DNA of 64,000 bases from Thermosporothrix hazakensis (GTDB lineage: Bacteria; Chloroflexota; Ktedonobacteria; Ktedonobacterales; Ktedonobacteraceae): NCBI RefSeq assembly GCF_003253565.1, contig NZ_QKUF01000001.1, forward strand, positions 825,867 through 889,866. The letters are read 5' to 3'. The first letter of the stretch is position 1. Every line of letters starts with the position of its first letter. A program made the translations under genes and the position numbers. This document shows, piece after piece, positions 45,594-57,258 of the stretch. The notes beneath the pieces are model-generated. The model made no database searches and was not told the origin of the DNA. It was given only the letters and a program-made list of their open reading frames with translations.

Positions 45594-45852
45594 ATCAGTT
45601 CAGCACAACAAAATATCAAGCGATGAACGGGATAAGTACCTGTTGGGTGATCTCAGAGAGCTGCGGGATGGTGCAACGCAGCGATACACCTTCAGCGAAA
45701 TCCACCCGGGAGCCTGCGCGAACAGCGTTTACGGTTCGTCCCCGTTACCGGACAACAACGAGGTTCACTTACAGGTGAATAAAACAAGGTGGCACCACGA
45801 TAGAGCATATTCTGCGTCGTCGTCCTGAAAGAAAAGGACACGGCGTTTTTTT
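45594..45852 (+). promoter_or_regulatory. T-box riboswitch of serS (specifier UCC)
   Basis: Stem I starts with the conserved AGCGATGA (45619-45626); the AG-rich bulge agaga precedes the distal stem gctgcg/cgcagc with an 11-nt loop. The specifier TCC (serine) is at 45701-45703, ten bases before the end of the ggagc motif. A short stem III ttcac/gtgaa precedes the T-box aaggtggcaccacg (45786-45799); its variable base is C, which would pair with G73 of tRNA-Ser. The terminator (45815-45845, one bulge) ends in seven T. Uncharged tRNA-Ser should favour the antiterminator and raise serS expression. Confidence 0.93.
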
Positions 45853-53897: not shown

Positions 53898-53926
53898 TTT
53901 ACAACTTCCACAGAGTATGGTATTAT
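53898..53926 (+). promoter_or_regulatory. Promoter of tRNA-Ala(CGC)
   Basis: TTTACA (53898-53903), 17-base spacer, TATTAT (53921-53926). Start of transcription near 53933, just before the tRNA. Confidence 0.8.
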
Positions 53927-53937
53927 CTAATCCGCAA

Positions 53938-54013
53938 GGGGGTGTAGCTCAGTTGGGAGAGCGCGACAATCGCACTGTCGAGGCCAGGGGTTCGAATCCC
54001 CTCATCTCCACCA
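53938..54013 (+). tRNA. tRNA-Ala (anticodon CGC)
   Basis: A complete 76-nt cloverleaf including encoded CCA. The acceptor stem gggggtg/catctcc contains the G3-U70 pair that identifies tRNA-Ala. The anticodon stem cgaca/tgtcg holds loop atcgcac with anticodon CGC at 53971-53973 (reads GCG). The T arm is aggggttcgaatcccct. No terminator follows, so read-through into the leuS leader is possible. Confidence 0.95.
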
Positions 54014-54044: not shown

Positions 54045-54073
54045 TTGCAAATCGCTGACGGATGTGGTATAGT
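54045..54073 (+). promoter_or_regulatory. Promoter of the leuS T-box leader
   Basis: TTGCAA (54045-54050), 17-base spacer, TATAGT (54068-54073). Transcription would start near 54080, immediately before stem I. Confidence 0.7.
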
Positions 54074-54209
54074 AAATACCGCCAAAGAGGAAGCGATGAG
54101 CAGGAGTAGTAGGTTTCTCGTCCAGAGAGTAGCCGGGTGGTGCGAGGCTACATCAGTAAACCGAACTCGCCTGGGAGCTACAAGTGTCAACAGGATATCC
54201 TGGTAGCGC

Positions 54210-54238
54210 TTGTCGGGACGCCCGTTATAGCGTAAAAT
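54210..54238 (+). promoter_or_regulatory. Possible internal promoter within the leuS leader
   Basis: TTGTCG (54210-54215), 17-base spacer, TAAAAT (54233-54238). A transcript from near 54245 would start with the extended stem III and the tRNA, skipping stem I. It overlaps T-box structural sequence, so chance is possible. Confidence 0.35.
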
Positions 54239-54245
54239 GAGAGTA

Positions 54246-54380
54246 AGTTCAAGGTAAGTGTACCAACACGATTTACAGAACATGGGCCTGTAGCGCAGTT
54301 GGGAGAGCGTCTCCATGGCATGGAGAAGGTCAGGGGTTCGAGTCCCCTCAGGTCCACCAACAAATTTGCTTACCTGAACT
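54246..54380 (+). repeat. Extended stem III arms enclosing tRNA-Ala(GGC)
   Basis: Left arm agttcaaggtaag (54246-54258) and right arm cttacctgaact (54369-54380) pair perfectly over 12 bp with one bulged A. The loop is a 25-nt linker, the 76-nt tRNA and a 9-nt linker. The right arm ends 8 bases before the T-box. Confidence 0.9.
54284..54359 (+). tRNA. tRNA-Ala (anticodon GGC) embedded in the leuS T-box leader
   Basis: A complete 76-nt cloverleaf with encoded CCA. The acceptor stem gggcctg/caggtcc has the alanine G3-U70 pair. The anticodon stem tctcc/ggaga holds loop atggcat with anticodon GGC at 54317-54319 (reads GCC and GCU). The T arm is aggggttcgagtcccct. The D stem gcgc/gagc has one odd G12-A23 pair. 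It lies in the loop of stem III of the leuS leader, on the same strand. Confidence 0.95.
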
Positions 54381-54497
54381 GAAAAATCAGGGTGGTACCA
54401 CGGAAAGCCTTTCGTCCCTCGCGGATGGAAGGTTTTTTTGTTGTTCCCTTCCCTGCTCTTCGTCATTCCTCGGTTCACGTTTGAGCCAGGAAGCTCA

Positions 54498-54526
54498 GGC
54501 CGTTTCCGCCAGAAACGGCCCTTTTC
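54498..54526 (+). terminator. Second terminator in the leuS leader
   Basis: Perfect 9-bp stem ggccgtttc (54498-54506) / gaaacggcc (54512-54520), 5-nt loop, followed by CTTTTC. It is about 270 bases before leuS, so leuS needs either read-through of two terminators or a further promoter. Confidence 0.8.
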
Positions 54527-54786: not shown

Positions 54787-57258
54787 ATGATTACGCGCAC
54801 AAAATACGACCCCAAAGAAATAGAACAGCGCTGGCAGGCCAAATGGGAAGCAGATCAAATCTATCATGCGCCGGATGAGTCGCCAAAAGAGAACTTCTAT
54901 CATCTGGTCATGTTCCCATATCCTTCCGGTGATCTGCATATGGGGCACTGGTACAACTACTCTGCACATGACGCCTTTGGTCGACTCAAACGCATGCAGG
55001 GCTATAATGTGATGCAGCCCATTGGCTTCGATGCCTTTGGCCTGCCCGCCGAAAATGCCGCGATCAAGCGCGGCATCCAGGCCCGGGACTGGACACTCGC
55101 CAACATTGAACGCATGCGTGATCAGCTCAAAGCAATGGGCGCAGGCTGGGACTGGCAACGCGAAGTAGTCACCTGTCTGCCAGAATACTATAAATGGACA
55201 CAGTGGCTCTTCCTGCAATTCTACAAGCATAATCTGGCTTATCGCACGAAAGCGCCCGCGAACTGGTGTCCGAGCTGTAACACCACGCTGGCAAATGAGC
55301 AGGTGCTGGCTGATGGCACCTGTGAGCGCTGTGGCAGCATCGTCGAACGCCGCGAGATCGACCAATGGCTGCTGAAGATCTCTGCCTACGCCGAGGAGCT
55401 GCTAAAGTTCGAGGATATTGACTGGCCTGAAAAAACGGTCACCATGCAGACTAACTGGATCGGTCGCAGTGAGGGCGCAGAGGTCCGTTTCACCGCTGAG
55501 ATCGAGGGCAAAACCGAAGCAATCTCCGTCTTTACAACACGCCCGGACACGATCTATGGCGTGACCTTCTTCGTTCTGGCACCAGAACACCCCTGGGTTG
55601 AGAAGCTCACTACTCCCGACCGGCGCGCCGACGTCGAGGCCTACATTGAACAGGCTCGCCGCGAAAGCGAGATCGAGCGCATGAACACCGAGAAAGAGAA
55701 AACCGGTGTCTTCACCGGCGGCTATGTCACCAACCCCGTCAGTGGCGAACCGGTTCCCGTCTGGATTGCCGATTATGTGTTGATGGGCTATGGTACTGGC
55801 GCGGTTATGGGCGTGCCCGCTCACGATCAACGCGACTTCGAGTTCGCACGGAAATTCGGTCTGCCTATTCGTCAGGTCATTTGTGCCGAAGACGAAGAGC
55901 CCTCCGATCCCGCGACCTGGGATTCAGCAAAGGCAGCCCTGGGCACAATGATCAATTCCGGACCGTTCAACGGAACCCCCGCCAGCGAGTCTAAAGCGCG
56001 TGTCATCCGCTACCTGGAGGAAAAGGGAATCGGGAAGGCAACCGTGAGCTACCGCCTGCGCGATTGGCTCATCAGTCGTCAGCGTTACTGGGGTTGTCCG
56101 ATCCCGATTGTGTACTGTGACTCCTGTGGCATGGTGCCGGTTCCTGAAGATCAACTGCCTGTGCGCCTGCCCGAATATGTCCAGTTCAAGGCAACCGGTG
56201 AGTCTCCGTTGCGCTACGAGAAGGATTTCCTGAACACCACCTGCCCGAGCTGTGGCGGCCCGGCAACCCGCGAAGCAGATACAATGGACACCTTTATCTG
56301 CTCATCCTGGTACTACATGCGCTATACCGATCCGCACAACAACGAGGAAGCATGGAGCCAGAAACGCATCAAAGAATGGATGCCGGTCGATCAATATGTA
56401 GGCGGTATCGAGCATGCGATCCTGCATCTGCTCTACTCGCGCTTCTTTACGAAAGCGCTGCGCGATATGGGTCATCTGCCCTTCGGTGAGCCGTTCAAGC
56501 GCCTGTTCCATCAGGGCATGGTCCTCGGTCCCGACGGCCAGAAGATGTCAAAATCACGTGGCAACGTCGAGGCGCCAGACCGTTATGTTGAAAAGTACGG
56601 TGCCGATACGGTCCGTAGCTACCTGATGTTCCTCGGACCGTTCGATGCTGGCGGCTCCTTTAAAGCGGAGAATCTGGAAGGCGTCTGGCGCTTCCTGAAT
56701 CGCTTCTGGACACTGGTCACAGAGAGCTGGAACGATAATCCAACCAATGAACAGAACGCGGAAACCCGCGCGATCGAGCGTCTGCGCCATAAGACAATCA
56801 AGCGCGTCACAGAAGATCTGGAGAATTTCCACTTCAATACGGCCCTGGCCGCGCTGATGGAGTGTAACAATGCGCTGATCAAGCAGCAGAAGAGCCCGGT
56901 TGCCAATAGCGCCGAGTATCGCAAGGCGTTAGAGACGATGATGCAGCTACTGGCCCCGATGGCCCCTCATATCACTGAGGAGCTCTGGCACCTGACCGGC
57001 CATCAAGGAAGCATCCACCTGAGCGAGTGGCCACACTATGATGAGGCCAAGACCCAGGATGAAACCTTTACGTTGGTCATTCAGGTCAACGGCAAAGTCC
57101 GTGAGCGCCTTGAGGTTCCCGCTAACATCAATGAAGGCGAGGTTCGCCAACTGGTGCTGGCAACGCCAAAGGTACAATCATTCATCGGCGATGCCACCAT
57201 TCAGAAGTTCATCTATGTTCCCGGTCGCCTTGCAAACGTTGTTGTTCGCAAGGGATAA
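54787..57258 (+). CDS. leuS: Leucyl-tRNA synthetase
   Basis: An 823-residue class I synthetase, full length for the bacterial type. HIGH motif as [20 protein letters not shown] motif as [17 protein letters not shown]. The CP1 editing domain is present between, with [22 protein letters not shown] and the [21 protein letters not shown] segment that hydrolyses mischarged tRNA. A zinc-ribbon-like [13 protein letters not shown]...CERCG and a second [18 protein letters not shown] are seen. The start at 54787 has ggggagg at 8 bases. Expression is controlled by the unusual T-box leader upstream. Confidence 0.97.

What the first reader, a model, noticed from the sequence alone, without database searches (positions are those of the whole stretch)
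54080..54439. A complete tRNA-Ala(GGC) gene sits inside stem III of the leuS T-box riboswitch
The leader has a standard stem I with specifier CUC and a T-box with UGGU, both consistent with tRNA-Leu sensing. Where the serS T-box in the same window has a 5-bp stem III (ttcac/gtgaa), this one has a 12-bp stem (54246-54258 with 54369-54380) whose loop is a whole tRNA-Ala with encoded CCA. RNase P and 3' processing of that tRNA would cut the aptamer (stem I) from the antiterminator. This would couple maturation of one tRNA to sensing of another, or release tRNA-Ala only as a by-product of leuS leader transcription. I know of no described T-box with this layout.
Basis: partly seen in the sequence, partly recalled or inferred. 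Interest (0 to 1): 0.95.

Follow-up and report, generated by a model that had tools for sequence, protein, structure and literature searches.

The report
Alanine tRNA gene inside leucine T-box
The leader of a leucyl-tRNA synthetase gene is a predicted leucine-tRNA-sensing RNA switch with a complete alanine-tRNA gene inside one of its stems; the same nesting recurs in several bacterial phyla, it is the only copy of that tRNA gene found in most genomes checked, and the tRNA would likely be cut from the transcript whether or not the switch turns the synthetase gene on.

Summary
Confirmed. The leuS leader scores as a T-box (RF00230, 94.0 bits, threshold 93), and tRNA-Ala(GGC) sits at the apex of its stem III. 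leuS follows in 86 of the 94 that show an ORF. Both modules are maintained: the RRRxG-stem III-AA frame closes around the tRNA with covariation (84 of 96 loci against 16.5% of swapped pairings), and 96 of 96 tRNAs keep G3:U70. The nested gene is the only tRNA-Ala(GGC) found in 27 of 30 carriers tested and in the window's genome. Best reading: one transcript, two outputs; tRNA-Ala from every transcript, leuS mRNA only after antitermination. A promoter-like element inside the T-box, conserved in the window's family, is an open caveat. No expression data exist here; ten paper searches found no description of the layout.

The parts
54045..54073 (+). promoter-like element before stem I, TTGCAA-17-TATAGT with TG before the second hexamer
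   Evidence: the same element in nearly all family members
54087..54422 (+). T-box leader, Leu specificity
   Evidence: RF00230, 94.0 bits
54166..54168 (+). specifier codon CUC
   Evidence: sequence; CUC in 91 of 96 relatives
54210..54238 (+). promoter-like element inside the T-box, TTGTCG-17-TAAAAT; overlaps stem II and the stem IIA/B region
   Evidence: conserved in the window's family only
54239..54243 (+). RRRxG purine string GAGAG before stem III
   Evidence: sequence; motif as described in PMC7583486 (passages)
54246..54259 (+). stem III, 5' strand (A54252 bulged)
   Evidence: covariation in relatives
54284..54359 (+). tRNA-Ala(GGC) with encoded CCA; anticodon 54317-54319
54368..54380 (+). 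stem III, 3' strand
54383..54384 (+). AA after stem III
   Evidence: sequence
54390..54422 (+). T-box sequence and antiterminator region, UGGU 54393-54396
54402..54438 (+). intrinsic terminator, competes with the antiterminator
   Evidence: paired in the family consensus
54787..57258 (+). leuS
   Evidence: TIGR00396, 1028.8 bits, cut-off 548.4
53938..54013 (+). tRNA-Ala(CGC), own promoter-like element 53898-53926, no terminator-like site found between it and the T-box
   Evidence: a tRNA-Ala(CGC) stands upstream in 26 of 26 family loci

Best explanation
This is a predicted leucine-sensing T-box leader of leuS whose stem III carries a complete tRNA-Ala(GGC) gene, so that one transcript would likely yield the alanine tRNA whether or not it reads on into leuS. 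Shown by sequence and comparison: the T-box parts; the tRNA and its place at the apex of stem III, between the RRRxG string and the AA; covariation of that stem across phyla; conserved Ala identity of the tRNA; leuS downstream; a promoter-like element before stem I; and the nested gene as the only tRNA-Ala(GGC) found in most carriers tested. Inferred and untested: transcription starts before stem I; uncharged tRNA-Leu(GAG) pairs with CUC and UGGU and favours the antiterminator; the switch decides soon after the tRNA has been made; RNase P and 3' trimming then release tRNA-Ala from both the short (terminated) and the long (leuS) RNA. The terminated leader, waste in an ordinary T-box, would then be a tRNA precursor; leuS would answer to leucine starvation and tRNA-Ala would not; and excision would take the aptamer off the leuS messenger. 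Persistence is best explained by lock-in: without a second gene the leader cannot be lost, while stem III tolerates an insert that lets its base close.
For: T-box and tRNA models both score. Pattern scan that does not specify the tRNA: 99 of 120 rows hold tRNA-Ala(GGC); pattern in 35 of 400 Chloroflexota-side genomes, reversed-pattern control 0, and in 24 of 299 of the phylum of Syntrophomonas. leuS next in 86 of 94. Specifier CUC in 91 of 96. Stem III anchored between RRRxG and AA: score 5 or more in 84 of 96, against 16.5% of 1,920 swapped pairings; all four Watson-Crick pair types at each of the first six positions. tRNA: G3:U70 and A73 in 96 of 96, anticodon stem 5 of 5 pairs in 96 of 96. 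Only GGC copy in 27 of 30 genomes; in the own genome none among 56 other tRNAs resolved out of 57 other hits. Promoter-like element before stem I scoring 9 or more in 41 of 42 Bacillota rows, an internal one in 4 of 42. tRNA-Leu(GAG) with A at the discriminator position is present.
Against: No expression or processing data. An internal promoter-like element scores 9 or more in 26 of 38 Ktedonobacteria rows and could make tRNA-Ala apart from the T-box. Before stem I a score of 9 or more is reached in only 1 of 20 other Chloroflexota and 9 of 13 Thermomicrobiota rows. Many relatives fall under the Rfam threshold: 7 of 14 family loci reach it, 2 of 7 elsewhere, L048 73.1 and L053 31 bits. Stem III scored under 5 in 12 of 96. 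Eight of 26 family genomes hold a second tRNA-Ala(GGC) of 89% identity or more. The nesting is dispensable: the tRNA can stand before the T-box (L260, L287), or before leuS without one (L261 and six of family f4).
Confidence: 0.72

Rival explanations
1. In the window's family tRNA-Ala is mainly made from its own promoter inside the T-box (TTGTCG-17-TATAAT type). Such RNA would lack stems I and II, would always stop at the terminator, and would leave the T-box to regulate leuS from the outer promoter. Two overlapping units, then, not one transcript with two outputs.
For: 54210-54238 matches 9 of 12; score 9 or more at this place in 26 of 38 Ktedonobacteria rows.
Against: Absent in the Thermogemmatispora-like rows, in families f2 and f3 and in nearly all Bacillota rows (4 of 42), so it cannot explain the layout at large. 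The hexamers overlap stem II and the IIA/B region, which are conserved for another reason. The outer element is there too.
Confidence: 0.2
2. Processing is part of the regulation: RNase P cuts the nascent leader before or during the decision and so limits the time in which tRNA-Leu can act, or tRNA-Ala folding helps or hinders the discriminator.
For: The tRNA sits in the domain that senses aminoacylation (motif from PMC7583486 passages); in several relatives stem III runs to within 0-2 bases of the tRNA.
Against: Cousins with the tRNA outside and a plain stem III (L260, L287) keep the T-box parts. Nothing measured.
Confidence: 0.15
3. Pure passenger: tRNA and T-box merely share a neighbourhood, the T-box no longer works.
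For: The tRNA stays next to leuS where the T-box is absent (family f4); many relatives score under the Rfam threshold.
Against: Specifier CUC, RRRxG, AA, UGGU and terminator are kept, and stem III covaries.
Confidence: 0.06
4. The tRNA is a non-functional structural or regulatory element.
For: Its place in a regulatory stem.
Against: Only tRNA-Ala(GGC) found in 27 of 30 genomes; G3:U70, A73 and a paired anticodon arm in 96 of 96.
Confidence: 0.02

Closest known systems
T-box riboswitch, RF00230 (e.g. the serS T-box at 45614-45830 of this window)
   Same: stem I with AGAGAG and specifier, stem II, RRRxG-stem III-AA, UGGU, terminator, synthetase gene downstream
   Different: there stem III is a short hairpin without a gene
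leuS T-box with tRNA-Ala(GGC) outside it (L260, L287)
   Same: same specifier, gene and tRNA, same strand
   Different: the tRNA stands before stem I and stem III is a plain hairpin
Bacterial tRNA-mRNA co-transcripts, such as the E. coli tRNA-tufB operon (recalled, from no call)
   Same: a tRNA is cut from an RNA that also carries a message
   Different: there the tRNA is not part of a regulatory fold
Insertions in stem III and helix A2 of translational T-boxes (PMC7583486, passage)
   Same: stem III can take extra sequence
   Different: the passage speaks of insertions, not of genes

Membership tests
T-box riboswitch (RF00230) | model score at or above the gathering score | tested here: met
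   94.0 against 93. Relatives: 7 of 14 family loci, 2 of 7 others
T-box riboswitch (RF00230) | specifier codon that fits the downstream gene | tested here: met
   CUC before leuS; CUC in 91 of 96 relatives
T-box riboswitch (RF00230) | RRRxG-stem III-AA of the discriminator | tested here: met
   GAGAG 54239-54243, stem III, AA 54383-54384 (one A-G mismatch near the base); 84 of 96 relatives
T-box riboswitch (RF00230) | UGGN that fits the tRNA end, and a competing terminator | tested here: met
   UGGU; tRNA-Leu(GAG) has A at the discriminator position; terminator 54402-54438
T-box riboswitch (RF00230) | uncharged tRNA causes antitermination | not testable with these tools
   needs a transcription assay
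tRNA-Ala gene | cloverleaf, GGC anticodon, G3:U70, A73 | tested here: met
tRNA-Ala gene | mature, charged tRNA made from this locus | not testable with these tools
   needs Northern blot or tRNA sequencing
Bacterial tRNA-mRNA co-transcript | tRNA and message on one RNA from one promoter | tested here: inconclusive
   promoter-like element before stem I, but an internal one as well in the window's family

The most novel reading that the evidence does not exclude
An ancient two-output switch: the discriminator stem of a leucine T-box is built on the cell's only tRNA-Ala(GGC), so every firing of the leuS promoter makes an alanine tRNA, and its excision by RNase P dismantles the switch after one use, fixing the leuS decision and tying the supply of one tRNA to the promoter of another amino acid's synthetase.
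Probability: 0.3. Interest if true: 0.93.

Novelty: new variant of a known kind. Interest (0 to 1): 0.86.

Why it matters
A riboswitch that holds a working gene inside its sensing domain, kept across phyla, is not described in the papers that could be searched here. If the reading is right, attenuated leaders can be productive: the 'off' transcript is a tRNA precursor. It also means that in these genomes the only tRNA for GCC alanine codons depends on the promoter of leuS, and that T-box function must be compatible with RNase P acting on the same RNA. It gives natural comparisons (tRNA inside, before, or without the T-box) for testing what stem III does.

Tried and rejected
Rejected: chance neighbourhood (conservation); assembly artefact (present in isolate genomes such as Ktedonobacter robiniae, Dictyobacter, Tengunoibacter and Syntrophomonas by record title); dead tRNA; tRNA output controlled by termination (the tRNA lies before the terminator). 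An idea that the GCC after the specifier pairs with the GGC anticodon was dropped: 6 of 96 have A in place of that G and R-CC is usual in T-boxes.

Led nowhere or weak: a stem search without anchors preferred spurious helices (54 of 128 with both motifs; swapped pairs reached the observed median in 15%) and was replaced by the anchored test. The anchored test allows one mismatch. Its pool of 128 loci left out three family loci (L026, L030, L036) with a variant T arm, and 96 remained after removal of near-copies and short rows. The LeuS tree (FastTree, 109 rows, sample rich in nested cases) puts nested rows among both Bacillota and Chloroflexota relatives and needs 13 changes of the nested label (shuffled mean 29.8); it shows an old, patchy trait, not whether gain or loss or transfer made the patches. 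Four rows labelled 'none' there (L105, L129, L137, L182) carry a nested tRNA before another gene. In one search the Ktedonobacteria rows include some genomes twice (two collections), and its shuffles keep base content only.

Counts to be read with care: the scan stopped at 120 rows. Of the 21 rows without an ARAGORN tRNA-Ala, two (L079, L149) are tRNA-Ala(GGC) leaders cut by the end of the stretch, four more (L074, L082, L133, L157) and L136 were looked at, and the other 14 were not inspected; L136 (tRNA-Arg) showed no T-box parts I could name. In one search three matches with a broken T arm (in G413, G417, G421) were dropped by eye before the copy count.

Full report
What is there. In the window, a promoter-like element (54045-54073) is followed by a leader that the Rfam T-box model scores at 94.0 bits, just over its threshold of 93. 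It has AGAGAG, the specifier CUC (54166-54168), a stem II, CCGUUA, the purine string GAGAG (54239-54243), stem III, AA (54383-54384), UGGU (54393-54396) and a terminator (54402-54438), then leuS (TIGR00396) 350 bases on. At the apex of stem III lies tRNA-Ala(GGC) with encoded CCA, 54284-54359. Stem III here has 13 pairs with one bulge.

The own genome. Of 18 T-box hits only this one has a tRNA in the stretch held around it. The tRNA model has 59 hits; two lie in the window, and ARAGORN resolved 56 of the other 57: tRNA-Ala(UGC) twice, no tRNA-Ala(GGC). With the window's CGC gene, the nested gene is the only tRNA-Ala(GGC) found. tRNA-Leu(GAG), which would read the specifier, is present and has A at the discriminator position, as UGGU asks.

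Relatives. In the class, the leader with its tRNA is found in 26 of 29 genomes of the same family, each with a tRNA-Ala(CGC) just upstream (26 of 26). The family f2 genome and five f3 genomes also have the tRNA before a T-box sequence, with weaker model scores (L048 73.1, L053 31 bits). In six f4 loci and in L261 the tRNA stands before leuS without a T-box. Eight of the 26 family genomes have a second tRNA-Ala(GGC) of 89% identity or more.

Beyond the class. The pattern GGTTCGANTCC-N(30-60)-GGGTGGTACC asks for a tRNA T arm before a T-box sequence but not for any amino acid. In genome contigs it stopped at 120 rows. ARAGORN finds tRNA-Ala(GGC) in 99 of 120: Bacillota 45, Chloroflexota 33, Thermomicrobiota 13, Atribacterota 4, Armatimonadota 1, a MAG titled Proteobacteria 1, unassigned 2. 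Seven rows hold other tRNAs; the one of these that was inspected, L136, showed no T-box parts I could name. The same pattern is in 35 of 400 genomes of the window's phylum, with a reversed-pattern control of 0 (one of the 35, in G359, reads like a tRNA-Ser), and in 24 of 299 of the phylum of Syntrophomonas. The exact pattern misses some: L273 and L276 are nested too. Of 30 genomes I picked from those two phyla (29 without the exact pattern), leuS is preceded by neither in 18, a T-box alone in 6, a nested tRNA in 3, a tRNA before the T-box in 2 and a tRNA alone in 1.

The gene downstream is leuS in 86 of 94 rows that show an ORF; five more rows have none in the stretch. The other eight look like ilvE (4) and acyl-CoA synthetase (3) by eye, and L151, where the longest frame was a wrong one and a leuS was found later.

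Both modules are under selection. For 96 loci left after near-copies were removed, a stem anchored between RRRxG and AA scores 5 or more in 84, against 16.5% of 1,920 pairings of one locus's 5' side with another's 3' side (Mann-Whitney p about 1e-41; loci are related, so the p is not literal), and all four Watson-Crick pairs occur at each of the first six positions. Twelve of 96 score lower. The tRNAs have G3:U70 and A73 in 96 of 96 and five paired positions in the anticodon stem in 96 of 96; CCA is encoded in 65 of 96. GGC itself is not a test there, as rows were kept for being tRNA-Ala. The specifier is CUC in 91 of 96, CUG in 2, UUA-like in 1, not found by that filter in 2.

Copy number. 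A tRNA-Ala(GGC) signature with up to three mismatches, searched in 30 carrier genomes, finds the nested copy in 30 of 30 and no other in 27; the exceptions are Tengunoibacter, Ktedonobacter robiniae and Dictyobacter aurantiacus with two. Draft genomes may lack some tRNAs.

Promoters. Before stem I, a score of 9 or more of 12 is reached in 41 of 42 Bacillota rows (16 of them perfect by my count of the listing), 36 of 38 Ktedonobacteria, 4 of 6 other rows of the order, 9 of 13 Thermomicrobiota and 1 of 20 other Chloroflexota. Between the specifier and the tRNA it is reached in 26 of 38 Ktedonobacteria, 4 of 42 Bacillota and 0 of 39 rows of those three other groups. So in Bacillota the tRNA seems to depend on the promoter of the leader; in the window's family a second start inside the T-box is possible.

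Mechanism. Because the tRNA lies between aptamer and terminator, it is in both RNA products. I therefore read the locus as one transcript with two outputs: tRNA-Ala always, leuS on antitermination. The start site, the response to tRNA-Leu and the RNase P cut are inferred. Whether excision matters for the switch is open; in this window 13 pairs of stem III flank both cut sites and could hold the halves together, while many relatives have only about 4-8 pairs.

Known or new. Ten paper searches found no such layout. I saw passages of PMC2494555, PMC7778990 and PMC7583486, and otherwise search listings only. The older T-box surveys by Vitreschak and by Gutierrez-Preciado (recalled) were not seen, and most subscription papers are not in the library, so an earlier mention cannot be excluded. 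I rate it a new variant of a known kind: a T-box by each sequence test made on the window, with a gene in its sensing domain.

Noticed in passing
53938-54013: tRNA-Ala(CGC) with its own promoter-like element stands just before the T-box; the same in 26 of 26 family loci, and CGC copies lie a few hundred bases upstream in several other Chloroflexota.
   Followed up: partly
54498-54525: A second G+C-rich hairpin followed by CTTTT between the T-box terminator and leuS, not listed by the terminator scan.
   Followed up: no
L051, L052 (family f3), after the T-box terminator: A short ORF followed by an inverted repeat lies between the T-box and leuS; it looks like a leader peptide with a second attenuator.
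   Followed up: no
L129, L137, L162, L182: The nested T-box stands before an ilvE-like gene in place of leuS.
   Followed up: partly
L073, L105, L108: In Desulfallas and relatives the nested T-box stands before an acyl-CoA synthetase-like gene.
   Followed up: no
L260, L287: tRNA-Ala(GGC) stands before a leuS T-box with a plain stem III; in L287 it has a terminator-like hairpin of its own after it.
   Followed up: partly
L148: A nested leader in which the specifier is followed almost at once by the stem III purines, as if stem II were missing.
   Followed up: no
54270-54293: In this one sequence the tRNA 5' leader (UUUACAG) can pair with the acceptor and D-arm strand (CUGUAG), an alternative fold that might slow processing.
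   Followed up: partly
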